16,289 nucleotides of DNA from Thermoguttaceae bacterium (GTDB taxonomy: Bacteria > Planctomycetota > Planctomycetia > Pirellulales > Thermoguttaceae): assembly GCA_017454585.1 (NCBI GenBank), contig JAFTCU010000190.1, positions 1-16,289 on the forward strand. Reading direction: 5' to 3'. Positions 1 to 13,572 of the stretch are shown in pieces. The translations under genes and the position numbers were made by a program. The notes below the pieces were generated by a model. It was not told where the DNA came from and did no database searches. It saw only the letters and a list, made by a program, of their open reading frames with translations. The stretch's first letter is position 1, and every line of letters starts with the position of its first letter.

Positions 1-1608
1 ATCCGCCGCTGGCTCAATGGCGGTCGTGCCCGACAGATGCGGCTTGCACAGATTTTGACGGTCTGCTTTATCGGGATGGTAACTTTGACGCTCGTTTCTT
101 TCCTCATGGGAGAAACCATTTACCGCGCCATGCTTGATTTGACGTTCCGCACGACGGCTCCCCATGCAGTTTACTCGAACCTGGCAAGTGATCTTGAAAA
201 AGAATCCAAAGGGTTGGATGTCCGTATTCAAAAAGAAGTAAAGGACCTCAAATCCGCTCGCGGTAACTGGCAGAAAATGGCGGTTAAAAAGATCAGCGAT
301 TCCAGCAAGTTTGTAGGAGCCTGGCAAAGCTGGCGGAACAGCGTGGAGGAAATCGTCGTTCAAAGCCTTCTCCTTCAGGAAATTAACGGCAAAATCAACG
401 AAGACAGCAAAAAACTCCTTGAAATCGACCGGGAAATGGCTGCCCTGACTGGTGACACGCTTTTCTTCCTCCGGGTCAAACACCTTGTGCGCTTTATGCT
501 GGGCAGTATGTTGGCCATCGTGACGTTCCTCGGAATTGCCGTTTTTTGGAGTGAGGTACATGCTCGCCTGCGCAGGACGCAAAACACCTGCCCACACTGT
601 CTTTCCGTCAACACCCTGGAACCGTGCGACGAAAACGGCCTCCAGATGCCGAGCAATTCCATCAAATCGAAAAACGTCCTGTGTACGAAAGTGGTTCAGG
701 AAAATCCTTACGAAATCTGTGGCTACCGATTCCCCCGTGAGCTTGCTTCACTCACGAAACTATCCTTCCCGACCCTGGGAATTCCGCAGGTTGGCAAAAC
801 ACACTGGCTCACGATGCTTTACTGGGAAATCGCGAACCGGTATTACCCCAAACTCGGTTTTTCATGTGTAACGTCGAGTGTCACGGAGGAAATGGACCGC
901 CGTGTGGATGAAATCATGAACTACCGAATCGGAACCGCGGCGACCCAGCGTGACAATATTCCGCTTCCACTCGTTCTGCGGTACAAAGACAAAGATCCGC
1001 TTGGCAGAACAGAGATCCTGGCCGACATTTTCGACTATTCCGGCGAAATTACAACCGATGCGCCAAGCGACGACTACCGCCGGGAGCGTGCGCTGAAGAG
1101 CGAAGGCTTTCTTTTCTTCCTGGATCCAACGTACCCATGGGTTCCGCAGGCTGAGGCGCTAAAACGATTCCGTAAGGACCTGAAATCCATAAAAGGCTTG
1201 CGCAAAAACGAGTCGCTTCGTCTTCCCATCGCGGTCTGTATGACCAAAATCGACCTTTTGCCGCTCGTGAAGTCCTTGGGTGCGGATGCGGAAAAAGAAG
1301 CGATCCACTTTTACGAAGAACTTGGGAAAATCGACCCGACGGGGATCGCGATGAACAAAGACGTGATCAACCGGCGAAGCGAACTGACCGACGAATTGCG
1401 CAAAAAGATTTGGCCCGATTGGGATATGGAATCTCAAATCAATGACCTGTTCGGCGGCCGATATAAATTTTTCCCGCTGACCCCGGTCGGGCTGGACGGC
1501 GTTGGCGAGGCGGACCTTCGTTTGCGTACCATCGCCCCGTTCGGTTTGGTCGAACCCCTCGCGTGGCTGCTCGAAATGAGCGGTTACCCGACACTCGACG
1601 CAAAATAA
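1..1608 (+). CDS. Membrane-anchored double-GTPase-2-like (DO-GTPase2) protein, 5' partial
   Basis: P-loop GTPase of TRAFAC character, tethered to the membrane. The frame is open to the left edge and no Shine-Dalgarno site precedes the ATG at 37, so the gene probably begins outside the window. Numbering from that ATG: hydrophobic segment 6-26; a charged, probably helical loop 30-148; second hydrophobic segment 150-171; a cysteine cluster (CPHC 185-188, then C197, C216, C228) resembling a zinc ribbon; then the GTPase domain. G1 is GIPQVGKT (248-255), G3 is DYSGE (333-337), G4 is TKID (403-406), and LTPVG near 481-485 may be G5. Arg-rich residues before segment 1 suggest the N-terminus and the GTPase are cytoplasmic and the loop external. 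Double-GTPase proteins of this type are known to occur with GAP1 proteins, and a GAP1-like gene lies two genes downstream. The GTPase call is firm; the DO-GTPase2 subfamily rests on context and recall of the family, not a search. Confidence 0.75.
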   Translation: MRRWLNGGRARQMRLAQILTVCFIGMVTLTLVSFLMGETIYRAMLDLTFRTTAPHAVYSNLASDLEKESKGLDVRIQKEVKDLKSARGNWQKMAVKKISDSSKFVGAWQSWRNSVEEIVVQSLLLQEINGKINEDSKKLLEIDREMAALTGDTLFFLRVKHLVRFMLGSMLAIVTFLGIAVFWSEVHARLRRTQNTCPHCLSVNTLEPCDENGLQMPSNSIKSKNVLCTKVVQENPYEICGYRFPRELASLTKLSFPTLGIPQVGKTHWLTMLYWEIANRYYPKLGFSCVTSSVTEEMDRRVDEIMNYRIGTAATQRDNIPLPLVLRYKDKDPLGRTEILADIFDYSGEITTDAPSDDYRRERALKSEGFLFFLDPTYPWVPQAEALKRFRKDLKSIKGLRKNESLRLPIAVCMTKIDLLPLVKSLGADAEKEAIHFYEELGKIDPTGIAMNKDVINRRSELTDELRKKIWPDWDMESQINDLFGGRYKFFPLTPVGLDGVGEADLRLRTIAPFGLVEPLAWLLEMSGYPTLDAK

Positions 1609-1615
1609 ATTTACG

Positions 1616-1724
1616 AATTATGAATTACGAATCATGAATTATGAATTTTAGAAACTCTTCAGGTTTCACGTCATAATTCACAATCAAGCCGTAATTCATA
1701 ATTCTTAATTCATAATTCATAATT
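1616..1724. repeat. AT-rich imperfect inverted repeat between the GTPase and kinase genes
   Basis: Arms 1616-1647 and 1693-1724 (32 nt each) are reverse complements at 29 of 32 positions, with a 45-nt centre. Each arm is made of repeated AATTATGAATT-type units. This fills nearly all of the 129-bp gap between the GTPase stop (1608) and the kinase start (1738). It could fold in RNA as a long weak hairpin that attenuates or separates expression, or be an intergenic mobile-repeat remnant. The sequence does not decide between these. Confidence 0.8.
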
Positions 1725-1731
1725 AGAAGGA
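1725..1731 (+). promoter_or_regulatory. Shine-Dalgarno site of the kinase-like gene
   Basis: AGAAGGA lies 6 nt before the ATG at 1738, directly after the right arm of the AT-rich inverted repeat. It fixes the start of the kinase-like gene. If the repeat folds, the site sits at the foot of the stem, so ribosome access could be affected; that effect is inference. Confidence 0.75.
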
Positions 1732-1737
1732 TAATTT

Positions 1738-4062
1738 ATGGCTTGGCCGCTTTCCTCCCATTTTAGTACCATGCTTCAAACGCCTCGTGTGGCGTTTAAG
1801 GACCCGGTTTTTAAAAACGCCCAGATTTTGCGGAACGCGCAAGGGCAGCCGAAACCGTGGGCGGGAGCTTTTGCGGTCGTTTATAAAGCAACGCTCGAAA
1901 ATGGGGAAAATCGGGCAGTACGTGTTTTTTCGTCCGAGTCCTCTGAACGCCGCGAGCGGTATGAAATCATAAGCCAGTATTTGCAGGATCACCCTGTCAA
2001 ATGCCTCGTCAATTTTGAGTACCGGGATAATGCCATACGTTCTACAGATGGAAGGTGGTATCCGCTCGTCATTATGGATTGGGTGGAAGGGCACACTCTC
2101 TTCCAGTGGGTCGATGGTCAGGCCCGAGCCGGAAACGCCAAAGCGATCCGCCTCGCAGCCGATGTCTGGGCGAAAATCGTTGCGGAGATGGAAGATGCCC
2201 AGATTGCTCATGGCGATTACCAGCAGGCAAATATCCTGGTTACGGCTGAAGGCCAGATGAAATTGGTCGATTACGACTGCATGTGTGTCCCGGCTCTGGT
2301 CGGAAGGCGAAATCTGGAAATTGGAGTGGAGCCATACCAGCATCCGGACCGGAACGGCGACACGCCTCTTTCACTGACACTGGACCGCTTTTCAGCCCTA
2401 ATGATCTACCTCTCGCTGCGCGCGTTGGCGGCAGATGTTTCGCTCTGGCAGAAATACGTCATTCAAACGTCCTACGACAAAATGATGTTCCGCAAGGAAG
2501 ATATTATGGCCTCGCAGGACAGCGAGTTGATCGCTGATTTGCGTCAGTCGCCGGACGAGGATGTTCGTGAACTGACAGAAATTTTGCTTCGTCAGGCCTT
2601 GGGCCCCATGGACGAAGTTCCCTCTCTGGCATTACTCATCAGCCCGATCCGCCGCGCGATGCCCTACCTTCAGTCAGAGCAATGGGCGGAGGCTGTTGAT
2701 GTCCTGAAAAAGCTGCAACTGAACGAAATCCCGACCGAAGTGAAATCCCTCGTGGAGAAGGCGTACGAGGAAGCGTGGAAAGCCAAATCTCTTGAGGATT
2801 TCCAAAACATACACTGGGAAGTCAACGAAAAGTGTGACCGTATGATCGCACGTGTTTGCAATGACAAATTCCTCAAGACGTTTCCAATGCCACCGGACAC
2901 TCAGGAAAAGGTACTCGCTGCACGAGAACGAATCCTTACAGTGGACCGGCTCTACAGGATGATGCGTCTGGCAAAGCAGAATTTGGCCCTTTCAGGCGAA
3001 CGCTCCATCGCGGCTCAAGGCGCTCTTTTACCGCCGGATTACGAGTACGCTGGCCGTGCACGGGTCCTTCAGGCTCAGAAAGTTATGGCGATCGTGGACC
3101 CCTTCCTGGAAAAACTCAACCAGCCGCACCAGAACGAAATCGAAATCGCGGAAGCGTGGGGAAATGTCCGTAAAAATAAACTTCAGGGCCTTCTGAAAGA
3201 CGAACAGCGAATTCGCGCGGAACTGGCGGTTATGCGCGCTCCAAGAATTAAAATCCTCGAGAGTTTCCGCAAAAACACTCCACTGGACCAGTTGGACCAG
3301 AAGATACTTTCCCTTTGGGATGTTAAACTTTTTGAAGGCTGCGAGCAGGTCCGAAAGTACGAGCGTTTATACAACATCGCGCTCCGCCGTCGGGTCAAAC
3401 TGGAAATGCTCACGGAAGCATTGGAAGCCAACCTGCCTGAAGAGGTTGCGGCCATTTTAAAGGACCCGCTTTTGGCTCACTACCCACTTCCGGGACCTTT
3501 GGCGACGAAAGTAAAAATTCGTCAGGAGCAGTGGACACACTCCGAAGGGATGATCGGCGCAATGGACGCCAATGATGCGAAACTCTTCATTGAGGCTTTC
3601 GACGCAAACGCACTCATAAAGGACCCGGAAATTTACCAGGAGATCTTCCCTCAGATGATCCCGTGGATCGAAGGGCAGATCCTGCCGCTCGAAACTAACG
3701 GTCTGCGACCCGTTTTCGGGCGCGCAAGTATCCTGAATGAAGAAGATGGAACCGTTTCGATCCGTTGGACCTGGATGCATCCCCGTTTTGGGAACGCGTG
3801 CGTTCTGGGCGTTTCCGGCGGTAAGATTTTAGACACGGACCGGCCAGAAGACGTCTCGCTCGTTTTCAACGCGGAGATCACGCGTTCCCAATGGGAAAAA
3901 AGCGGTAGTTTCTTCACGCTGACTCCTGACCCGGCCTGGAATGGCATGAAAGTCATCGTTTGGGGTGTGATCGAGACTGGATTCCAGCGTTTTTATACCC
4001 AACCGCTGATTCTCGGTAACCTGGACATTAAAAAGAAATCGTGGTTTAAGTGGAAGAAATGA
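1738..4062 (+). CDS. Protein-kinase-fold protein with Lys-to-Arg change, long helical region and C-terminal beta-sandwich
   Basis: 774 residues with no signal peptide or membrane span, so probably cytoplasmic. Residues about 25-240 carry a Ser/Thr-kinase-like fold: glycine-loop-like AGAFAVVYKA (42-51); AVRVF (60-64), in which the usual ATP-binding Lys is Arg62; hinge VIMDWVEG (111-118); catalytic HGD (158-160) with N164; DYD (178-180) in place of DFG; an APE-like GVEP (196-199); and the subdomain IX Asp in LDRFSAL (D216). Catalytic-loop Asp/Asn and metal-binding Asp are kept, so activity is possible but atypical. Residues about 270-640 are predominantly helical, charged and repeat-like. Residues about 655-760 look like beta strands (RWTWMHPRFGNACV, VIVWGVIE) and may be an Ig/FN3-like sandwich. 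The start is backed by AGAAGGA 6 nt upstream. The stop overlaps the next start as ATGA, pointing to coupled synthesis with the GAP1-like protein. The kinase fold is firm; catalytic competence is uncertain. Confidence 0.85.
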   Translation: MAWPLSSHFSTMLQTPRVAFKDPVFKNAQILRNAQGQPKPWAGAFAVVYKATLENGENRAVRVFSSESSERRERYEIISQYLQDHPVKCLVNFEYRDNAIRSTDGRWYPLVIMDWVEGHTLFQWVDGQARAGNAKAIRLAADVWAKIVAEMEDAQIAHGDYQQANILVTAEGQMKLVDYDCMCVPALVGRRNLEIGVEPYQHPDRNGDTPLSLTLDRFSALMIYLSLRALAADVSLWQKYVIQTSYDKMMFRKEDIMASQDSELIADLRQSPDEDVRELTEILLRQALGPMDEVPSLALLISPIRRAMPYLQSEQWAEAVDVLKKLQLNEIPTEVKSLVEKAYEEAWKAKSLEDFQNIHWEVNEKCDRMIARVCNDKFLKTFPMPPDTQEKVLAARERILTVDRLYRMMRLAKQNLALSGERSIAAQGALLPPDYEYAGRARVLQAQKVMAIVDPFLEKLNQPHQNEIEIAEAWGNVRKNKLQGLLKDEQRIRAELAVMRAPRIKILESFRKNTPLDQLDQKILSLWDVKLFEGCEQVRKYERLYNIALRRRVKLEMLTEALEANLPEEVAAILKDPLLAHYPLPGPLATKVKIRQEQWTHSEGMIGAMDANDAKLFIEAFDANALIKDPEIYQEIFPQMIPWIEGQILPLETNGLRPVFGRASILNEEDGTVSIRWTWMHPRFGNACVLGVSGGKILDTDRPEDVSLVFNAEITRSQWEKSGSFFTLTPDPAWNGMKVIVWGVIETGFQRFYTQPLILGNLDIKKKSWFKWKK
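4059..4062 (+). other. ATGA start/stop overlap (translational coupling)
   Basis: The kinase stop TGA (4060-4062) shares bases with the ATG of the GAP1-like gene (4059-4061). A GGAAG (4052-4056) lies only 2 nt before this ATG, which suggests re-initiation by terminating ribosomes and a fixed ratio of the two proteins. Confidence 0.8.
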
Positions 4063-7000
4063 TTCACCAGTTTTACTTTACGCACTGCACGTACGCTTCC
4101 TCCGCGCTGGAACGGAAATCAGGCGAAGTGGGACCGCATCCGCTTGGCTACAGCGTTCGAGCCGCCTCGGTTCAGGGACCGGCTCTGCGAGAGATTTTCC
4201 GCCGTCTGGAACATTACGTTTACTACTACCTTCCGACCGATACACCGGCCCAGGAAAAAGAATCCTGTACGGACGTAAATTCCCCCAAACGCCTCGTTTT
4301 TCTCCCGGAAACGGATTTCGGACCAGTCCTGATGCGGCTTGCGTATCGTTCTAAAGACACTGCAGGACGAATTGGTTCCTACTTCTGTCACGTACTGGCT
4401 GGTGATGATAAAAAGCTGGAGAAATTCACCTCCTCAGTAACCAAATCCGGAACCGCTCCGATTCCGCCCACACCGCCCGTATCCTCCGCACCATCCCTTC
4501 CTCCGATTCAGCCTTCCACACCTGCGCAGCAGACCACACCTTCCACGTTAACAGCCCACACAGCCCTCCAGCTCTGGGACGCGCCAGAATGGGTAAGCAA
4601 GGACGAGGAATGGTTTCCGCACGACATTCACCCCTTTGACTCTCTTCAGGATGTTCTGCGGAACAGCTCGCCGGCCATCGATGATCGCGTTTTGGCCTCT
4701 TTCCTGACCACGGAGTCAGGTGGGACTTTCTATGACCCGAAAAACGTCATTCCGGAACGCTGGCGTAAAATGCTCCTCACGGAACGTCAGCAGATATTTA
4801 AAACCATCCTTTACGGCTTCCTTTTGACGCGTGACAAACCGGGGGAAAACCTCTTGCTCGTCGTGGAACCTTCCATGGCCGCTCTCCTTTTTTACGGGAT
4901 CGGCCAGTTCTTCCCGCCTGCACTTTCACGTACACAAAGTTTTTCAACCTACGAGCCGCTTCCGGATCGCTTGATCACGAAACTCGCCGCTACAACATTT
5001 CGCACTCCGGAACAGAGCGACCTGAATGACGCTTTGTACCAGGGTCGCTCCTTTGTACTGAATACGTGGAACGGTCGAACCTCCAATTTTGACGCGGCAG
5101 GACTGACGACTTCGTACATTTCACACATCTGGAAGCAGTTCCTGGCGGGGAGCCTGACTCAGGTCAAAACCTTCTGTTCGACGTTCAATTCCGTCGGGAT
5201 CACGACGATGAACGATCTGAAGGCCCTGATGGACGTGGAAAATATTTACCACCAAATCATGCTGGACGACGAATCGTCCATTACGCGCAGGAAGCCGGTT
5301 CCGGAGAAACTTTCCAGTCTTCCGCTCTCGTCAAGCCGTACGGCCGTAACGCTCCTGAAGCGACGTATTGCGGACGGTCTGACCAAAATCATGGCTCAGC
5401 CGCTCCCCGAGGCGGAAAAAGCCCTGAAAAACATCGTCGGGACCCCCGGTCAACTCCTTTTGCTCGAGCTTCTGGGAACAGGCGGGAATATTCCGAATGT
5501 CCAGAATGCAGTTCAATTCCTGACGGACAGTCTGCCGATGGAATTCCTCGCCAAGTGGCTCAAATCTTCACAGGCCAGCGACGAGTATAAAGGAAAACTC
5601 CTCGAAAAGTGGTTCCTTCAGCTCCGTACCATGCCAAAGGACTGTGAGTTTCTCTGGAAAATTTCGGTCGAATCGCTAAGAAACCAGAGCGTTCCTGGCC
5701 AAAAGCCGCCAATCCCGAACGCGAACATTCTGCCGGAAACGCTCATTCGGCTTCCGCATGATGTTCTTTGGGACGCATTCAACAGCGCTCCAGTCGTGCC
5801 GTTCCAGAAAGAAATGGTCATGGCCTACACTTTGGGTGTTTCCCGGCTGGTCGAACGTGAAGGGGCGCTCAGTGAGTCTGTAATGGCCATCCGAAAAAGG
5901 TTGGACCATTTCATTCAAAATGTCCCGGAATCCCTTTTCGGCCAGATTTACCGTGAGTTTGGGAACTGGTTTTTCCTGAACTACCCCGGCGACTCACTTT
6001 TCCTGGGTGAAAAATTCGCGAAACTGGAAGAAACCATTTTCCTTAAACCTGCTGAAATCTGCGGGAAACTCGACATTTTATTCGACATCCAAGACATTTT
6101 GCCCGAAAGAGTACTTCCGCGAATCAAACGCTGGCGTACCCTGCAGAAATCCGCTCAGGCAGTCGTAAATTTTCAGGCTCAGCCCGGCAAAAAGTTCCAG
6201 TTTCGTGTTCTGGATCAAGCGTGTGAGGCACTGGCTCAGGCGACGTACGAGGTTTTCGACGACGTGCGTTTCCTGGCGGCTTGTGGGGGGCCTGCAGCCG
6301 ATAAATTCGCTAAAATCTCCGGAATTAATAACGCTCAGCGCAATCGGCTCGTCGAGCAGGAACTCGCTATTTTACCGCAGTTGTTCCGCCAGTGGTACAA
6401 CGTGGAATTCCTTCCTCCCAGGAACAAATCCCACGAACTGCTTCAGAAAAAACTGAAATTTTACCTTCAGACGAAAGAGTGGAAATCCGGCGGTATTTCC
6501 GTTTTGGGAGGTAAAATCTGGATACTGGCGATTGTTGCCGGAGCCGCCATTGGCCTTTTGGCCGCGCTGCTCTTCTTCACTCTGTTTTCTGGTAAATCAG
6601 CGGGGCCGTCAATAAACGACACGCCATTGACACAAGTCACATCGGATGAAAATGATGATCCGAATACTGAAAACACCAAAACTTCCACTGCTCCAAAAGA
6701 GAAAAAAAAGAAAACCTCAACGGTCAGTTCGTCTAAAGTAAAGAACGGACCAGCCGACGAAAAAACGGAAACCGAACCTCAGGAAACTGTTTACCTGCCG
6801 GAAACCGACGACGAAACGGCCCAGCTTGCCGGTGCCGAGGATCCCGGAGTGGGTACAAATCCTGAAGATAATACGGAGTCCGAAGAAAACGATTCCTATG
6901 ATCTGGAAGCGCTGGAAAAGCCAAATTCCGGAAAATCGTTCCAGCCGACAGACGTGGCGGAACTCGAAAAATGGGACAAAAAGCTGAATGAAGACGGTTT

Positions 7001-8597
7001 TTGCCGTTTCACAAAACTGGAACTTGCATCGTTCCAATCGTCCAAAATGAACCCTGATTACACGGCTCTTAAAACCCGCGAGCCAATAAATCGCTGGTTT
7101 ATCAATGAGCCGCAAGTTTCCGGGCTGAAACTGGAACGCGGTTACATCCTTTTCGAGGGGACCGCGTACCCGTTTGGTGAAGCCAACTGTGTCACCGCCC
7201 CGGTCCCGATGGAAATGGAACCCGCCGCCGATTCCGAAACCAAATCTGAGCAGTTGGTCACTCCGCCGAAGGCCGGGAAAAACGTTTTGACCGCAGAAAA
7301 GGCTGCCATGACTCACTCGGACGATGAGCCTGGGTTACGTTACAGTGTACCGGACCTCGCAGAAGCGCTGGGAGTGAAGAGGGCTTACGTCGAGCTGGAA
7401 GACGGGCAGCTGACCATTCACATTCAAAAGAAAGAGCAGACGGATGACGAGATCGACGCGCTCACAGAAGAAGTCAACTCCTTAAAGGCCCAATATTCCC
7501 AGCTATCCCAATTGATCGAAAGCTGCAAAAAAAGCAGTCCCCGAAGCGCCCAACGCAAATCACAATTCAATAGTTTGGCCACTTTAGTTGGAAAAGCCAC
7601 ATTCAAAGACCAGCCTGAAAAGCAGGACGACCTTTTAACCATCGCCTATCAGAAAAAGGAACGGCTTGGCAAACTTTTGGCACTAAAAAGAAGGAACCTT
7701 CCCGGCAAAGAAAGCGTTTGGACTCCAAACGAGGAAGAAATCATCCGCCGTCTTCAGGGACGTAAATCGAACGATTTCCTCAAACCGGCGGAACGCCCGG
7801 AACCAGTCGAAGTCGCAGCCGTTTTTTCGGGGAATTTTTTCTACAACCTGCCGCTTCCGCAGGGAATTCAGAATTTCCTGAACCAAAACGCAGCAAAAAC
7901 AAAACCCTCAGGAGCCGAGGAAAACCTGGATTCCCTTTCAAATCCATCATTGATCCAGGAGGGTACGGAAGAAAAAACCGACGAGATATTTGATTCCGGA
8001 GAAAGTACTGAGGAATTGGCAGATCAGGTTTACAACCGTCTGAAAGAAGGATTCCAGAAATCCTCAAACACACAGGAAAACGATCGGCTTTATGTCCTGG
8101 TTCCTGCTGATACGGAAAAAAACCTGAAAGAGGGTGGAGACATTTTTATCAAAAAATCCCTCTCCAAACTCAAGCAGACTCAAAATTCCATCCATTTCCG
8201 AATCGACGGTCAAAATCTGCCAGCGAACCTGAACATCACCGCGAGAATTCGTGAGATAGTTCCCGGCAGTCTCGAAACCAAAGACCGCGAAATGGGCCCA
8301 ATTTCCTCCCAGACGGAACCGATCGTCCTTTCGGATGAATCGGCCTACGTGCTGATTTCCCTCCGGTTTCAAAATGCCTCGGCTGATTTAACTCAGGAAA
8401 AAACCTTCGTCACTCCGTACTATTTGATCCAATTGAACCAGGGTGAAAACAGTACACCGGCAGGGCACGTCCTTTCGGTTCAGTTCGGGCGGAAATTCCT
8501 TGGGAAATTCGCATCCGAAACTTCGGCTTCCAGGGCTCCTTCTTTGCAGGACCGGCTTCCCACTCCACAGAGAAGCCGAAACCGTAATTCCAGATAA
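4059..8597 (+). CDS. GAP1-like protein (type-2 N-terminus and middle domain) with mid-protein membrane span and large C-terminal tail
   Basis: 1512 residues from the ATG at 4059, whose ATGA overlaps the kinase stop; an in-frame GTG at 4050 would add three residues but lacks a Shine-Dalgarno site. Residues 1-115 match the GAP1 N-terminal type-2 pattern: HQFYFTHCTYAS at the start, GYSVRAAS (30-37), then LAYRSKDTAGRIGSYFCHVL (94-113). A Pro/Thr/Ser-rich linker (about 130-168) leads to a middle-domain-like stretch (about 170-390) with RTQSFSTYEP (291-300), followed by a long helical region to about 805. One strong hydrophobic segment (about 820-844) follows basic residues, so the front half should be cytoplasmic and the last 665 residues on the other side. 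The tail begins with an acidic, Lys/Thr-rich low-complexity linker (about 850-955), includes a probable coiled coil (about 1155-1190), and is otherwise unrecognised. GAP1 proteins are known partners of double-GTPases, agreeing with the GTPase gene upstream. The gap to the next gene is 47 bp. Confidence 0.78.
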   Translation: MIHQFYFTHCTYASSALERKSGEVGPHPLGYSVRAASVQGPALREIFRRLEHYVYYYLPTDTPAQEKESCTDVNSPKRLVFLPETDFGPVLMRLAYRSKDTAGRIGSYFCHVLAGDDKKLEKFTSSVTKSGTAPIPPTPPVSSAPSLPPIQPSTPAQQTTPSTLTAHTALQLWDAPEWVSKDEEWFPHDIHPFDSLQDVLRNSSPAIDDRVLASFLTTESGGTFYDPKNVIPERWRKMLLTERQQIFKTILYGFLLTRDKPGENLLLVVEPSMAALLFYGIGQFFPPALSRTQSFSTYEPLPDRLITKLAATTFRTPEQSDLNDALYQGRSFVLNTWNGRTSNFDAAGLTTSYISHIWKQFLAGSLTQVKTFCSTFNSVGITTMNDLKALMDVENIYHQIMLDDESSITRRKPVPEKLSSLPLSSSRTAVTLLKRRIADGLTKIMAQPLPEAEKALKNIVGTPGQLLLLELLGTGGNIPNVQNAVQFLTDSLPMEFLAKWLKSSQASDEYKGKLLEKWFLQLRTMPKDCEFLWKISVESLRNQSVPGQKPPIPNANILPETLIRLPHDVLWDAFNSAPVVPFQKEMVMAYTLGVSRLVEREGALSESVMAIRKRLDHFIQNVPESLFGQIYREFGNWFFLNYPGDSLFLGEKFAKLEETIFLKPAEICGKLDILFDIQDILPERVLPRIKRWRTLQKSAQAVVNFQAQPGKKFQFRVLDQACEALAQATYEVFDDVRFLAACGGPAADKFAKISGINNAQRNRLVEQELAILPQLFRQWYNVEFLPPRNKSHELLQKKLKFYLQTKEWKSGGISVLGGKIWILAIVAGAAIGLLAALLFFTLFSGKSAGPSINDTPLTQVTSDENDDPNTENTKTSTAPKEKKKKTSTVSSSKVKNGPADEKTETEPQETVYLPETDDETAQLAGAEDPGVGTNPEDNTESEENDSYDLEALEKPNSGKSFQPTDVAELEKWDKKLNEDGFCRFTKLELASFQSSKMNPDYTALKTREPINRWFINEPQVSGLKLERGYILFEGTAYPFGEANCVTAPVPMEMEPAADSETKSEQLVTPPKAGKNVLTAEKAAMTHSDDEPGLRYSVPDLAEALGVKRAYVELEDGQLTIHIQKKEQTDDEIDALTEEVNSLKAQYSQLSQLIESCKKSSPRSAQRKSQFNSLATLVGKATFKDQPEKQDDLLTIAYQKKERLGKLLALKRRNLPGKESVWTPNEEEIIRRLQGRKSNDFLKPAERPEPVEVAAVFSGNFFYNLPLPQGIQNFLNQNAAKTKPSGAEENLDSLSNPSLIQEGTEEKTDEIFDSGESTEELADQVYNRLKEGFQKSSNTQENDRLYVLVPADTEKNLKEGGDIFIKKSLSKLKQTQNSIHFRIDGQNLPANLNITARIREIVPGSLETKDREMGPISSQTEPIVLSDESAYVLISLRFQNASADLTQEKTFVTPYYLIQLNQGENSTPAGHVLSVQFGRKFLGKFASETSASRAPSLQDRLPTPQRSRNRNSR

Positions 8598-8644
8598 ACA
8601 GGACAATTTTTCACCATAAATCATCAGATTTATTCATATAAGCC

Positions 8645-10267
8645 ATGAAAAATCGCACGCTTATTTTGCTTCTCCTCGCACTGCTCCCGCTTGTAATACT
8701 AACGGGTGCGTCCCTTTGGGATTTTTTCTCCGTTCCTCCCCGCTCGGCGCCTAACGACCAGGAACTGATTGCTGAAGTTGACAGAGGCAAGCTGGATCGC
8801 CTCAATGGGATCAAAGTCGCAAAAGCCCTCGAGGTTGGTCTTGAGGACGTACAGTTGATCCTCCCGCTCGACCCGCAAAAATCCCAATTCCTCAATCACA
8901 TGGGGCACTACGGCGAATACCGTGGAGGTCTGGCTTACGTCCAGCGCTGGAACTCCGTCCTGAGCAGCTTTCTGGAGACATTGCGTCCCTTGCGTAAAAT
9001 CACATCAGAGGCTCTTTCAGATGCCGAGGAAATGAACGAGGAAAACGAGGAAATCTCCACAGGCGCGTTTGAAAGCATCCGTAAAGCCATGGGGCGATTG
9101 AACGGTGCGTTCCGGGAGTTTAATTTCTCCCTTGAAGAATTTTCCAAGGCGTTTCCGGAGGTTCCTCTCGCCAAAGATTCCAACGAAATCTCTGCCGACC
9201 TGAAGGAAATGGTCGATTTGGCTTCGGAACGGGTCAAGCGCGCGCGGGAAATGCACCAGCTCAAAGCATCCTTTATGGAAGCACAAAAACACTATGAGGC
9301 GGGTGAACTCCTCAAATGTAATCAGCTCTGTGCCAAAATTCTGACCAGTGAACTGGCAGATGACGCATTTCTGGAAAAAGTCCAGAAAGTTCACTACAAA
9401 GCCCGCGCCAAGCGTGCGATTAACGAAATCGACGAGATTGAAAAATCAGAAAGTATGCCTCAGCGTCGGCTCGACCGGCTGGAAGAACTGTCCGAAAAAG
9501 TCCGCGACGCGGGTAAACGGCTGGACGCGGAAACCAAAGAATCCCTCGGAAAGGAATTCCTGACAAAAATGAACGACGTGGTCATCGCCAGCGTCGAGGA
9601 ACTTTACTCGGACGAAATTATCCAAGCGATTTCGGCGCTGGAAAAGAATCCGCCTCAAAGTTTCGCGGATGGGCTTTATGAAGTTGGGAAAATCGCCGAG
9701 AATATCCAAAAAATGAACTCCCAACTCAAGAAAAGCATGGGGACCACCGAAACTCTTCCAAGTGTGACAGCATTTCGGGAGAGGCTTCAGGTCTTTCTCG
9801 AAACGTTGTTGAAAGACAGGCTCCCCGCAGATATTTCGGCTGATGAAAACATCCAGGAAGCTGTTCTGACGGGTCGAAAAACCGTCACTGGCTACTTTAA
9901 ACCAGTAATGGAAGACGGCAAGAAAGTCGGCTACAAAATTTACGACTCTTACGAAGATTTCAAGAATCCAACCGGTTCGAAAGGAGTAACTCCGATCAAG
10001 GATTTCCTCGCCGAACCCGGTCCATCTCTGGAATCGCGCTGTGTCAAGGAGTATCTGCTTGCACGCGAAGAGCTTCTGAAGAGTTTCGAGAATAAAATTT
10101 TCTGGACCCGTTTCCTTGAAAAATGCGAGGAACTTCAGAAAGAATTGAGGGACTGGGAAAGCAGAACCGGTCTGAAGGTTTCCTTCTCACTCAAGGAACA
10201 AATTGCCATAGCCAAAAGGACGCTCCAGGACGAGAACTGGAACATCATCAGGAAAATATTCAAGTAA
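8645..10267 (+). CDS. Membrane-anchored coiled-coil protein of unknown function
   Basis: 540 residues, no recognised family. Residues 1-5 are basic and 6-26 form one hydrophobic stretch (TLILLLLALLPLVILTGASLW region), which reads as an uncleaved signal anchor. The rest would then lie outside the cytoplasm. Most of it is charged and helical, with probable coiled coils at about 110-215 and 240-330, and a TPR-like pair of helices (EAQKHYEAGELLKCNQLCAKIL region, 212-233). A short strand-rich insert (about 415-445, GYFKPVMEDGKKVGYKIYDS region) breaks the helices, followed by helices to the end. The start is fixed: an in-frame TAA (8639-8641) ends one codon before the ATG. No strong Shine-Dalgarno site is visible, and the gene starts 47 bp after the GAP1-like gene. 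Its anchoring and helical nature suggest a partner for the external tail of the GAP1-like protein; that is inference. Confidence 0.7.
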   Translation: MKNRTLILLLLALLPLVILTGASLWDFFSVPPRSAPNDQELIAEVDRGKLDRLNGIKVAKALEVGLEDVQLILPLDPQKSQFLNHMGHYGEYRGGLAYVQRWNSVLSSFLETLRPLRKITSEALSDAEEMNEENEEISTGAFESIRKAMGRLNGAFREFNFSLEEFSKAFPEVPLAKDSNEISADLKEMVDLASERVKRAREMHQLKASFMEAQKHYEAGELLKCNQLCAKILTSELADDAFLEKVQKVHYKARAKRAINEIDEIEKSESMPQRRLDRLEELSEKVRDAGKRLDAETKESLGKEFLTKMNDVVIASVEELYSDEIIQAISALEKNPPQSFADGLYEVGKIAENIQKMNSQLKKSMGTTETLPSVTAFRERLQVFLETLLKDRLPADISADENIQEAVLTGRKTVTGYFKPVMEDGKKVGYKIYDSYEDFKNPTGSKGVTPIKDFLAEPGPSLESRCVKEYLLAREELLKSFENKIFWTRFLEKCEELQKELRDWESRTGLKVSFSLKEQIAIAKRTLQDENWNIIRKIFK

Positions 10268-10297
10268 ACCCGAATTTCATTCATAAACTTTTTTCAC

Positions 10298-10302
10298 AAG
10301 GA
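10298..10302 (+). promoter_or_regulatory. Shine-Dalgarno site of the first vWA gene
   Basis: AAGGA lies 7 nt before the ATG at 10310, the clearest ribosome binding site in the second half of the operon. It supports the MYSQEIS start. Confidence 0.7.
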
Positions 10303-10309
10303 TTTTGTA

Positions 10310-11164
10310 ATGTACTCACAGGAAATCAGTCGTCATAACAAAGCATGTTTCCTTTTCCTTTTGGACCAGTCGTACTCCATGGAAGAGCCTCTTGGAGCCT
10401 CCCAGAACCGCAAATGCGACGAGCTTGCCGCGGCCATTAACGCCTGGCTTCAGAATATGGCGATCCGCGCCAGTGGTGACTCGGGGATTAAGGACTGGAT
10501 GGACATTGGTGTCTTTGGCTATCGTACTGACCCAGTGGGAAATCCAATCATTGAGTCGGCGCTTCGCGGACCGTTTACCGGTCGTTCGATCGTTTCGATT
10601 ACCGATCTTGGAATGAATCCTATCCGAATCGATCAGCGTATGCAGGTCATTCCCGATGAAGAAACGGGCGAAGTTTTCCAGATCCCCTGCGAAGTCCCGA
10701 TTTGGGTGGACCCGGTCGCGGAAGGGGGAACGCCGATGTGCCACATGTTCTACCACGCCCACGAACTTCTTTCCGCCTGGATTTCAGAGCACCCCTACAG
10801 TTTCCCGCCGATTGTGGTTCATATTACAGACGGCGAGTCCCAGGACGGTGACCCGGTTCCGTTTGCTCGCGCTTTAACAAGTCTGGCAACAAACGACGGA
10901 AACGTCCTCCTTTTCAACTGCCACCTTTCGATGGCCGCGAATGATTCCTTTATGTTCCCGGCCACTCCCTCGGGGCTTCCTGACCAGCTGGCCTATAATC
11001 TTTTTGAAATGTCGAGCATTTTGCCCGACACTTTTTACCAGCACGCCATCATGGAAGGATTTCCACTTCAGCCGGGAGCGCGCGGAATGGCCTTCAATGC
11101 CGATATGGTTTGCCTGATTCAGTTCCTGAACATGGGGACCCAGGCCGCGCCGGGATTACGGTGA
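10310..11164 (+). CDS. vWA-domain protein with intact MIDAS
   Basis: 284 residues, no signal peptide or membrane segment, so probably cytoplasmic. The whole protein is one von Willebrand factor A fold. Its metal-ion-dependent adhesion site is complete: DQSYS (D19, S21, S23) after the first strand, T141 in GGTPM, and D174 in HITDG. Such a site binds a divalent cation and uses it to contact a partner protein's acidic residue. Length is close to a bare vWA domain, with an insert around 85-135 (GMNPIRIDQR region) that is shared with the next gene and marks them as paralogues. Bacterial vWA proteins of the TerY type are known to work with kinases and phosphatases; a kinase-like gene is in this operon but no PP2C phosphatase is seen. 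The vWA fold is firm; its partner is not known. Confidence 0.88.
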   Translation: MYSQEISRHNKACFLFLLDQSYSMEEPLGASQNRKCDELAAAINAWLQNMAIRASGDSGIKDWMDIGVFGYRTDPVGNPIIESALRGPFTGRSIVSITDLGMNPIRIDQRMQVIPDEETGEVFQIPCEVPIWVDPVAEGGTPMCHMFYHAHELLSAWISEHPYSFPPIVVHITDGESQDGDPVPFARALTSLATNDGNVLLFNCHLSMAANDSFMFPATPSGLPDQLAYNLFEMSSILPDTFYQHAIMEGFPLQPGARGMAFNADMVCLIQFLNMGTQAAPGLR

Positions 11165-11248
11165 TTTTCTATTAAAAATTCCCAGGGCTGAGCCAGATAT
11201 GACTATCCCTGTATAAAGAAACACTGACAAATCAACCATTGAAAGAAA

Positions 11249-13456
11249 ATGAATACAGCGTGTGCAGTTTTTTTGATTGAAGAATCCCCTTCGATGAAAA
11301 CGCGAATCGCAGAAGGAACGCATTCCCGACTGGAAAGTATTGCCACGGCGGTTAATTCCGCGATTCGGCAAATGGAGGGAATGCCGTCCATTGATGTTGC
11401 GATTATCGGGTATCATCGCGACGCGGAGGGCAATCCAGTCATAGGGAGTCGTTGGGGCGGCCCTTATGAGGGGAAAATATGGGTTTCTTCGGACGTTCTG
11501 GCAGTTAATCCTATCCGAATCGAGACTCGGGCCAAACACATGGTGAACCCGGTTACGCGGGCAGTGACTCAAATGACCGTTGAGTTCCCCGTCTGGTTCG
11601 ACCTGATCCCCGGCGCAGGCAGGCTGCAGTATAAAACCGTTTATGAGTATTTGGCCCAAATGCTCAACGATTGGATCCAGCAAACGGAACCCGCAATTCC
11701 GCCGCTGGTTTTCAGCTTTCTCTCGGACCTTCAGCCCAACGATTCTATCGCTGACGCGGTCATTCCTCTGGGAAAGGTTTCGACGCAGCAGGGTTTTCCA
11801 ATGCTCCTCCAGTTCCACGTTGGATCCTACACCAACGTCCCGGCCATCAAGTACCCTAGTGTCGCCCAGTTCCTTCCTTATGGGCCGGTCCAGGAGCTTT
11901 TTTACGCATGCAGCCCTCTGACCGATTTTATGTTCACGGCCTTGCGCCAGAATCAGGAATTTCCCACTGCCGGGGCCAAGGCGCTGGTTTACAATGGCCG
12001 TATGATCGACATTGTGCGGATGCTCGGTTGCGTAAAGGTTTTCCAATCCATGCGCCCGGCACACGCTTCAGGGACCCAATTAAAAGCTGGTCCTGAATTT
12101 AACGTTTCTGTCCCGGAATCCAGCCCTCAAATTCCCGATTTTAAACCTCAAAATACGGCAATCAAGCCGCCAATTCCCGCGTTTGCCGCACAGCCGCCTC
12201 AAACTTCGCCGATTGCTCCGCCGAACCAGGAAAGCGCGCATCAACAGCCCCCGTTGATGGCAGAGCCACCTCAGTTTCGGGCGCAGAATCCCCCAATGGC
12301 TGCACCGAATCAGGAGAACAAGCCACTGACACCACCGTTGATGGCTCAGCCTCCAGAAATCAAACCTGCTCATCTCGCGATGCCGCCGGAACAGCCAGCG
12401 TCATCTCCGATTCCGTCCATTACGCCTTGTCCTCCCATCCAGTCCAAAACCCGCAATTCGTTCCAAATGCCGGGCGTGATCCCAATGTCGAAATCCTCAG
12501 ACGCCTTATTTGAAGATTTCGACCATGAGTCGGACGAGGACGATTCTCTTTCCGATATTCCATCGGTAGAAAATCTTCCTGAAGTGAAAGCGGATATCAT
12601 ACCGGACGGTTTTGAGTACCGGTGCCAGCCGTTTGCAACGAACAAATCCGTACCGGAACCTCCGAACCTTCCGCCGCGGCTGGCCCTGGTGATCCTCATG
12701 ATGGACCGTTCCGTCTCCAGCCTGATGTACAAACCAGCCCTTGAAACGTGGGAGAAACGAAAGGACAAGATCCGCTTTATGCTCGGTGAATTTGCCCGCC
12801 GCGGACGTGGCCGTTACGACGTTGGAATCGTATCCTACGGCAAAGAACGGGATGGCAAAATGTCCGTGTACCGAGGTTCCCTGGGAAGAACTTTCCTTTC
12901 GGATAATTGCCTGACGGAAACGGCCGGCAAGGTCGAACTGACGATGATCCAGATCCCCAACGGAATCGGCGGCCTGATTTCTCTTCCACGCAAGAAGCTT
13001 TACTTCACGGACTGCACGCCGACCTATTCCGGCGATCCCGTGATGGGGATCCAGAGCGCGATCGAGATCATTCGCGAGTGGGAACAAACCCGCCAGAATA
13101 AAGTGCTTTCGCCTGTCATCGTCCATTTAACGTCAGGTTATTTCCGCACGGAACGGCTGGATGAGGCGTTGAACCTTTTGGCCGACCCAACACTTCCGCA
13201 GGTTTCATTCCTTCAGTGGGTTTTCACCGAGCGTCCTCACATCGGAGTTTGCTGTCCGGCAGATACCACTTTCACGCATGACGAAACACTTCAAATGCTT
13301 TGGGAACGGACCGACCCGCTCCCCGCTCGAGAATTTCTGGCGGGGCTGCGTCCCGGCATTCACGAGGAATCACGCGGAATGATGGTCAATATGGATTTCG
13401 ACGTCCTTTTCGAGGCACTCGACACATTGGCCAAGAAGAAGAGCGAGAAGCCGTAA
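11249..13456 (+). CDS. Tandem vWA protein with degenerate MIDAS sites and Pro/Gln-rich linker
   Basis: 735 residues, probably cytoplasmic. Domain 1 (about 3-265) is a paralogue of the preceding protein: IEESPSM replaces LDQSYSM (Asp to Glu11), GYHRDAEGNPVIGS and VNPIRIE align with GYRTDPVGNPIIES and MNPIRID, the MIDAS Thr is Arg125, and the last Asp is kept (D160 in FLSD). A Pro/Gln/Ala-rich linker (about 290-400) holds two imperfect copies of a unit built on PNQE and PPLMA, followed by an acidic patch (421-433, FEDFDHESDEDDS). Domain 2 (about 475-735) keeps DRSVS (D486, S488, S490) and a T590 or T592 in DCTPT, but has HLTSG where HITDG is expected (S629 for Asp). The start is fixed by an in-frame TGA three codons upstream; the Shine-Dalgarno signal is weak. 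It is the last gene of the operon, 84 bp after the first vWA gene. A scaffold or regulatory role is inference. Confidence 0.85.
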   Translation: MNTACAVFLIEESPSMKTRIAEGTHSRLESIATAVNSAIRQMEGMPSIDVAIIGYHRDAEGNPVIGSRWGGPYEGKIWVSSDVLAVNPIRIETRAKHMVNPVTRAVTQMTVEFPVWFDLIPGAGRLQYKTVYEYLAQMLNDWIQQTEPAIPPLVFSFLSDLQPNDSIADAVIPLGKVSTQQGFPMLLQFHVGSYTNVPAIKYPSVAQFLPYGPVQELFYACSPLTDFMFTALRQNQEFPTAGAKALVYNGRMIDIVRMLGCVKVFQSMRPAHASGTQLKAGPEFNVSVPESSPQIPDFKPQNTAIKPPIPAFAAQPPQTSPIAPPNQESAHQQPPLMAEPPQFRAQNPPMAAPNQENKPLTPPLMAQPPEIKPAHLAMPPEQPASSPIPSITPCPPIQSKTRNSFQMPGVIPMSKSSDALFEDFDHESDEDDSLSDIPSVENLPEVKADIIPDGFEYRCQPFATNKSVPEPPNLPPRLALVILMMDRSVSSLMYKPALETWEKRKDKIRFMLGEFARRGRGRYDVGIVSYGKERDGKMSVYRGSLGRTFLSDNCLTETAGKVELTMIQIPNGIGGLISLPRKKLYFTDCTPTYSGDPVMGIQSAIEIIREWEQTRQNKVLSPVIVHLTSGYFRTERLDEALNLLADPTLPQVSFLQWVFTERPHIGVCCPADTTFTHDETLQMLWERTDPLPAREFLAGLRPGIHEESRGMMVNMDFDVLFEALDTLAKKKSEKP
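12212..12355 (+). repeat. Imperfect repeat units encoding the Pro/Gln-rich linker
   Basis: Two units of the form PNQE, a few residues, PPLMA, PP occur at residues 322-341 and 352-369 of the tandem-vWA protein, with PPMAA between them. The DNA copies have diverged in sequence, so this is old duplication or selection for composition, not a fresh tandem repeat. Confidence 0.5.
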
Positions 13457-13468
13457 AATCAGCTGAGT

Positions 13469-13500
13469 TGCGACTTGCGTTTTGAGAACTGCGAGTCGCA
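13469..13500 (+). terminator. Hairpin just after the operon
   Basis: TGCGACTTGCG (13469-13479) pairs with the segment 13490-13500 (ending AGTCGCA) over 11 positions including two G-U pairs, around a 10-nt loop. It begins 12 nt after the last vWA stop. No U-run follows, so it may protect the 3' end of the message or act with the next hairpin, and is not a textbook terminator by itself. Confidence 0.55.
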
Positions 13501-13532
13501 CAAAGCGTGACGTAGAATAAAAACTTGACTCG

Positions 13533-13566
13533 AAAAGAGGGTGGCCGCAATGACCACCCCTTTCTG
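13533..13566. terminator. Probable bidirectional terminator between convergent genes
   Basis: GGGTGG (13539-13544) pairs with CCACCC (13554-13559) around a 9-nt loop. The stem is preceded by AAAAGA and followed by CTTTCT, giving U-rich tracts on both strands. It lies between the + strand operon and the - strand RraA-family gene, which end facing each other, so it can serve both. Confidence 0.6.
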
Positions 13567-13572
13567 AAAATT

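What the first reader, a model, noticed from the sequence alone, without database searches (positions are those of the whole stretch)
1..13456. Candidate membrane-spanning GTPase / kinase / GAP1 / vWA system
Six co-directional genes join a membrane GTPase, an atypical kinase-like protein, a giant GAP1-like protein, an anchored coiled-coil protein and three vWA domains. GAP1 and double-GTPase proteins are described as partners in NTP-dependent conflict systems. Here both carry membrane spans and large segments predicted outside the cytoplasm, with no recognisable effector. That points to transmembrane signalling or envelope remodelling more than a simple abortive-infection module.
Basis: partly seen in the sequence, partly recalled or inferred. 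Interest (0 to 1): 0.8.

Follow-up and report, generated by a model that had tools for sequence, protein, structure and literature searches.

The report
Membrane GTPase–GAP1 system with TerY-P kinase
A planctomycete related to rumen bacteria carries a conserved gene cluster that joins a membrane GTPase switch and its GAP1 partner to a TerY-P-type kinase, vWA and (in relatives) phosphatase module; it looks more like an inherited signalling apparatus facing the cell envelope than a roaming defence cassette, though no function has been tested.

Summary
Six co-directional genes encode a membrane DO-GTPase2 (cut by the window start), an atypical kinase, GAP1-N2 with one membrane span and a ~664-aa outer tail, an anchored helical protein, and three TerY-type vWA domains (1+2). 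In 16 held genomes of the same planctomycete family the first three genes are neighbours in this order.

(1) Kinase and vWA match PADLOC's TerY-P models, and the third TerY-P partner, a PP2C with its acidic residues intact, lies beside a vWA gene in 12 of 15 of those genomes that could be checked. It is absent next to the operon in the window and in nearest relative G001, which keeps it alone on another contig. (2) Kaur et al. 2020 describe this combination, as restricted to actinobacteria.

The kinase tree matches the RpoB tree at 13 of 13 splits in 16 genomes. The kinase is present in 27 of 101 family genomes, all-or-none within the five multi-sampled genera that have it. No viral copies and only distant plasmid kinases were found. 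Selection is purifying. This favours an inherited transenvelope signalling switch over mobile defence; ligand, substrate and output are unknown. New variant of a known kind.

The parts
1..1608 (+). g1: membrane DO-GTPase2, 5' end outside the window (window starts at residue 262 of the 796-aa G001 ortholog). In that ortholog hydropathy suggests an N-terminal hydrophobic segment, an outer N-terminal region, three spans with an outer loop, then a 4-Cys zinc ribbon and cytoplasmic GTPase (GIPQVGKT, DYSGE, TKID).
1738..4062 (+). g2: STK_OB-type kinase (about 1-307), helical middle, beta-strand-rich C-terminal domain (about 665-761). beta3 Lys replaced by Arg; HGD, N and DYD kept.
4050..8597 (+). 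g3: GAP1 with GAP1-N2 domain (4-123), cytoplasmic part to about 813, one span (814-851), C-terminal outer tail of about 664 residues, polar and acidic
8645..10267 (+). g4: protein with an N-terminal anchor, a long helical region and a small beta-hairpin insert (404-433); no family recognised in Pfam, NCBIfam or PADLOC
10310..11164 (+). g5: TerY vWA with complete MIDAS motif; the most conserved of the six genes (98% to G001)
11249..13456 (+). g6: two TerY-like vWA domains with degenerate MIDAS, joined by a fast-evolving Pro-rich linker
13457..13572 (.). place where many relatives have the PP2C gene; none here, and an RraA-like gene follows on the - strand

Best explanation
This is a planctomycete form of the GAP1-N2/DO-GTPase system in which the switch (g1, g3) and an anchored helical partner (g4) are built together with a TerY-P phosphorylation triad (kinase g2, vWA g5, PP2C encoded next door in most relatives and, in G001 and G306, elsewhere), plus a double vWA protein (g6). 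Proposed working: the outer parts of g1, g3 and g4 read a state or ligand in the envelope; GAP1 passes this to the membrane GTPase, whose GTP or GDP state recruits or releases the cytoplasmic triad; the kinase phosphorylates a target docked on the MIDAS-intact vWA g5, the degenerate vWAs of g6 act as scaffold, and PP2C resets it. It is a vertically inherited signalling apparatus of the lineage, not a mobile killing module. Shown by sequence: the families, the motifs, operon conservation, PP2C as the partner in relatives, kinase descent congruent with RpoB. Inferred: topology, direction of signal, who phosphorylates what, envelope input, and the presence of PP2C elsewhere in the window's own genome.
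For: Families. GTPase: GKT, the DYSG/DFSG/DYAG motif and KID in 18 of 18 rows, Walker B Glu in 17 of 18, four Cys in 18 of 18. Kinase: HGD and N in 41 of 41 sequences, DYD in 37 and DLD in 4. TerY MIDAS complete in 17 of 18. PP2C: eight conserved positions kept in 19 of 19 (all). Of the 16 genomes with g1-g2-g3, PP2C lies beside a vWA gene in 12, is solo in G001 and G306, was not found in G354 and was not searched in G338. Kinase and RpoB trees share 13 of 13 splits in 16 genomes, three of them triad-only. Kinase present in all 19 sampled genomes of the five multi-sampled genera that have it: 8, 4, 3, 2, 2. No relative of g2 or g1 confirmed in viral contigs; plasmids: two distant kinase hits (<33% identity, ~35% of the query) and none for the GTPase domain. 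Purifying selection, fastest in the outer GAP1 tail and the g6 linker. No PADLOC hit in 10 selected flanking proteins.
Against: TerY-P triads protect Pseudomonas aeruginosa from phage (PMC10889362, passages), and defence genes can be inherited vertically. Across the family the kinase is patchy (27 of 101 genomes, 13 of 40 genera). The tree test covers the kinase only, not g1, g3 or g4. PP2C is not beside the operon in the window, G001 or G306, and one PP2C row (L106) has no Pfam match at E<=0.01. Nine genomes keep the kinase with no g1 or g3 found. Topology is from hydropathy only; in two GAP1 rows (L100, L107) the flanking charges point the other way and the tail is short. No ligand-binding domain was recognised in the outer parts.
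Confidence: 0.5

Rival explanations
1. Anti-phage or anti-invader defence: the GTPase/GAP1 pair senses infection at the membrane and the TerY-P triad carries out or regulates the response.
For: Kaur et al. 2020 class GAP1 systems as conflict systems (sections read); TerY-P is protective in PAO1 (passages); all three triad proteins match PADLOC TerY-P models; patchy across the family's genera (13 of 40).
Against: Kinase and RpoB trees identical at 13 of 13 splits; uniform presence within five genera; no PADLOC hit among 10 selected flanking proteins; none confirmed in viral contigs, only distant kinase hits on plasmids; no nuclease, pore or NADase effector recognised by Pfam or PADLOC in the six proteins.
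Confidence: 0.3
2. Two independent modules that merely share an operon: a TerY-P triad (metal or nucleic-acid stress signalling) and a GTPase/GAP1/g4 membrane complex with a separate job.
For: Kinase present with no g1 or g3 found in nine genomes, a vWA and/or PP2C gene beside it in six of them (G304, G323, G335, G319, G328, G305; not in G350, G364, G310); PP2C unlinked in G001 and G306, and g1-g4 and g5-g6-PP2C on separate contigs in G366.
Against: g2 sits between g1 and g3 in all 16 contiguous loci; Kaur's actinobacterial theme pairs the same parts.
Confidence: 0.15
3. Chance neighbourhood of unrelated genes.
For: None beyond the weak single-sequence score for g1.
Against: Order conserved in 16 genomes at 38-90% kinase identity (G374, G342 and G338 are not rows).
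Confidence: 0.01

Closest known systems
GAP1-N2-type GTPase-centric system, third theme (protein kinase + PP2C + vWA), Kaur et al. 2020, PMC7159879
   Same: GAP1-N2 protein, DO-GTPase with zinc ribbon and TM segments, GAP1 with C-terminal TM, kinase fused to a beta-strand-rich domain, PP2C, standalone vWA (sections 27 and 29).
   Different: The paper calls this theme restricted to actinobacteria; this is in Planctomycetota. One GTPase, long outer GAP1 tail in most rows, an anchored helical protein (g4), a double degenerate vWA (g6), PP2C sometimes unlinked, no FNIII protein recognised by Pfam. No actinobacterial third-theme locus was obtained for direct comparison.
TerY-P triad (TerY vWA, PP2C, S/T kinase with zinc ribbon or OB fold; composition as given in PMC11090510, passages)
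   Same: All three PADLOC models match: STK_OB 192.7 bits, TerY 242 bits, PP2C in 13 of 13 rows of A7.
   Different: The STK_OB match ends at residue 301; the C-terminal part is helical plus an unassigned beta domain. In the full operon the kinase lies between GTPase and GAP1.
Type II/III-A CoCoNuT operons with TerY-P (PMC11090510)
   Same: TerY-P attached to a GTPase-containing system, with duplicated vWAs of which one has an intact and the other an incomplete MIDAS (passages).
   Different: No McrB GTPase, helicase or HEPN nuclease recognised in the six proteins.
Other GAP1-N2 loci of the phylum (L169-L176) and the second GAP1-N2 locus of G001 (L090)
   Same: GAP1-N2 in the same phylum, 22 of 294 genomes.
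   Different: No kinase, vWA or PP2C of these families in the stretches fetched around the loci of 8 of those genomes, nor in L090.

Membership tests
GAP1-N2 GTPase-centric system | GAP1-N2 domain in the GAP1 protein | tested here: met
   PF20013 29.2 bits > 24; 17 of 17 rows match
GAP1-N2 GTPase-centric system | GAP1-M middle domain | tested here: inconclusive
   8 of 17 rows match PF20014 at E<=0.01; the window's own protein does not
GAP1-N2 GTPase-centric system | GAP1-C domain | not tested
   no model of it was used
GAP1-N2 GTPase-centric system | DO-GTPase with conserved Walker B glutamate and zinc ribbon | tested here: met
   PF19993 in 17 of 18 rows (window below the curated cut-off); Glu in 17 of 18, four Cys in 18 of 18
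GAP1-N2 GTPase-centric system | FNIII-repeat protein | tested here: inconclusive
   no fn3 Pfam match in the six proteins; the beta-rich C-terminus of the kinase was not assigned a fold
GAP1-N2 third theme (kinase + PP2C + vWA) | catalytically active kinase | tested here: inconclusive
   HGD and N kept in 41 of 41, but beta3 Lys is Arg in 38 of 41; activity not testable
GAP1-N2 third theme (kinase + PP2C + vWA) | adjacent PP2C and vWA | tested here: inconclusive
   vWA adjacent in the window; PP2C beside a vWA gene in 12 of 15 genomes checked but not in the window, G001 or G306
GAP1-N2 third theme (kinase + PP2C + vWA) | restricted to actinobacteria, as stated in 2020 | tested here: not met
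   the named loci that carry g1 or g3 are all Planctomycetota records
TerY-P triad | TerY vWA, STK and PP2C together | tested here: met
   PADLOC PDLC02222, PDLC02223, PDLC02224; met at system level through relatives, PP2C not in the window itself
TerY-P triad | kinase C-terminal OB fold or zinc ribbon | tested here: inconclusive
   C-terminus helical plus beta domain; fold not searched on its own
Mobile conflict system | mobile gene neighbourhood | tested here: not met
   kinase shares 13 of 13 splits with RpoB; no viral relatives confirmed; g1 and g3 trees not tested
Mobile conflict system | variable effector component | tested here: inconclusive
   no effector recognised by Pfam or PADLOC; outer tail of GAP1 is the fastest-evolving large part
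Anti-phage defence | protection against phage | not testable with these tools
   needs experiment

The most novel reading that the evidence does not exclude
A branch of the GAP1/DO-GTPase systems, so far catalogued as immune-type conflict systems, is in planctomycetes a core, vertically inherited transenvelope signalling apparatus in which a GTPase switch gates a TerY-P kinase/phosphatase relay; TerY-P defence triads and GAP1 systems would then be redeployments of one ancient signalling design.
Probability: 0.35. Interest if true: 0.7.

Novelty: new variant of a known kind. Interest (0 to 1): 0.5.

Why it matters
It extends a theme reported as actinobacterial to another phylum, ties two separately catalogued systems (GAP1/DO-GTPase and TerY-P) into one conserved operon with its phosphatase identified, and gives evidence that part of such a system can be inherited like a housekeeping gene. 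That makes the question whether these systems are immunity or envelope signalling testable in a defined lineage.

Tried and rejected

Corrected on the way: an ORF caller that kept the longest ORF hid the kinase of G374 and the g5 of G309 and others; they are seen. The first PP2C profile held two wrong rows (L100, L139); it was rebuilt as A7 for later searches, so the PP2C adjacency in G342 (L082/L115) and in the triad-only locus of G305 rests. The first RpoB tree used a wrong frame for G309 and G304; one search replaces it. Rows dropped before the tree: 20 of the 27 kinase-positive genomes were searched for RpoB; G374, G338 and G300 were left out for broken RpoB and G342 for its split kinase frame, leaving 16; the other 7 were not searched.

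Led nowhere: a sample of 149 genomes from the phylum of a Frankia locus gave one with GAP1-N2, whose neighbourhood showed none of the other genes; one Frankia genome had GAP1-N2 with a g1-like gene but no kinase or vWA of these families beside it. So no direct comparison with the actinobacterial theme. A single-sequence search with g3 found only G001 among 294 phylum genomes; the family model found 22 of 294.
Full report
WHAT IS THERE. The window holds six + strand genes up to 13456, tightly packed, with g2 and g3 overlapping by 13 bases. The first is cut by the window start: the ortholog in the nearest held genome, G001, has 796 residues and the window begins at residue 262. After g6 come an RraA-like gene on the - strand and a DUF4838 protein. 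G001's contig has the length of the record 'Thermoguttaceae bacterium isolate RGIG3279, Goat_Reticulum'. The 50 named loci of the kinase scan include distant kinases from other phyla, but those that carry g1 or g3 are all Planctomycetota records. Of 32 g1 relatives in the protein search, seven carry a taxon name: six Planctomycetia or Thermoguttaceae, one 'bacterium'. The window's own assembly is not held.

NEIGHBOURHOOD. 27 of 101 sampled genomes of the family, in 13 of 40 genera, have a strong kinase match (E <= 1e-80). In 16, g1-g2-g3 are contiguous in this order; in G317 they are on separate contigs; in nine no g1 or g3 was found (68-95% complete genomes); G300 has no g1 and a distant GAP1. 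g4 follows in all 13 whose contigs reach it, g5 in 12 of 13. Beyond the family, L120 (g1-g2-g3), L121 (g2-g3-g4, no g1 found), L122 (g1-g2-g3-g3), L123 (g1-g2-g5) and L124 (g2-g3) keep parts of the order, with 40-48% identity in the best kinase segment.

THE MISSING PARTNER. Many relatives have a PP2C phosphatase next to the vWA genes. It matches the PADLOC PP2C model of the TerY-P set in 13 of 13 rows; Pfam PP2C_2 is above its cut-off in some, below in others and absent in L106. Eight conserved positions are kept in 19 of 19. Of the 16 genomes with g1-g2-g3 it is contiguous with the operon in nine (G382, G339, G311, G309, G315, G368, G342, G356, G332), beside g6 on a second contig in G378, G374 and G366, solo in G001 and G306, not found in G354 (88% complete), and not searched in G338. 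No PP2C was found in the window or in the G001 operon locus. The window and G001 share the downstream neighbour RraA, so the break after g6 looks shared; that PP2C persists elsewhere in the window's genome is inference.

HOW IT EVOLVES. Kinase and RpoB trees of 16 genomes, three of them triad-only, share all 13 splits (Mantel Spearman 0.72, permutation p 0.0005). In the five sampled genera with two or more members that carry the kinase, all 19 sampled genomes have it (8, 4, 3, 2, 2); in two of these genera (5 genomes) no g1 was found. Between window and G001 dN/dS is 0.014 (g5), 0.059 (g2), 0.065 (g1, part), 0.10 (g4), 0.11 (g6) and 0.17 (g3), with 0.25 in the outer GAP1 tail. No relative of g1 or g2 was confirmed in viral contigs (short patterns, so limited sensitivity); plasmids gave two kinase-domain hits under 33% identity and none for the GTPase. 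Ten selected flanking proteins gave no PADLOC hit. In the kinase-domain tree the GAP1-linked kinases fall in a planctomycete group with triad-only ones nested and more distant TerY-P triads outside; several nodes are weak, so gain of GTPase/GAP1 followed by loss is only suggested.

READING. The system works like, and by family tests belongs with, GAP1-N2/DO-GTPase systems and TerY-P triads together. Kaur et al. 2020 (PMC7159879; outline, sections 27-29, part 1 of section 35 and passages seen) describe this combination as a third theme restricted to actinobacteria. A CoCoNuT paper (PMC11090510, passages) describes TerY-P and vWA duplications with an incomplete MIDAS; PMC10889362 (passages) shows TerY-P protecting PAO1; PMC11237479 (one passage) notes a DO-GTPase near psp operons, predicted to act in membrane stress. 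Gao 2020 and Anantharaman 2012 are known to me only through these papers. In the held library 'DO-GTPase' occurs in Kaur and the psp paper only, 'GAP1-N2' in Kaur only, and a combined search with planctomycetes gave Kaur only; supplements could not be read, so planctomycete members may already be listed there.

I favour an inherited, envelope-facing GTPase-gated phosphorylation switch (0.5), with defence as the main rival (0.3).

Noticed in passing
L090 (G001:C16:34001-54000), 9048-16807 -: G001 holds a second GAP1-N2 locus (short GAP1 of 472 aa, next to a protein that starts with a CxxC motif, and further co-directional genes) without kinase or vWA of these families.
   Followed up: partly
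L162 4600-5262 +, L156 8637-9302 -, L159 3660-4517 +: A small gene with a similar start (M.I.PN.P) follows PP2C in three genomes of the genus and may be a further member of the system.
   Followed up: no
L115 (G342) 5266-7528 +: The kinase gene is read in two overlapping frames, a frameshift or an assembly error; left as is.
   Followed up: no
L157 and L095 (G366): g1-g4 and g5-g6-PP2C lie on separate contigs with other genes following g4, so the operon looks truly split in this genome.
   Followed up: partly
L159 1-1299 +: The linker of g6 in G374 contains tandem Pro/Ser/Ala-rich repeats.
   Followed up: no
L086 (G308) 1036-6513 -: A distant kinase of this family in a 1289-aa protein, with PP2C and TerY genes adjacent.
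   Followed up: no
L116-L119, L125: A clade of related kinases in planctomycete MAGs has none of g1, g3, g4, g5 or PP2C in the fetched flanks.
   Followed up: no
L110: A 43% identical kinase sits on a contig labelled Candidatus Nealsonbacteria, possibly a binning error.
   Followed up: no
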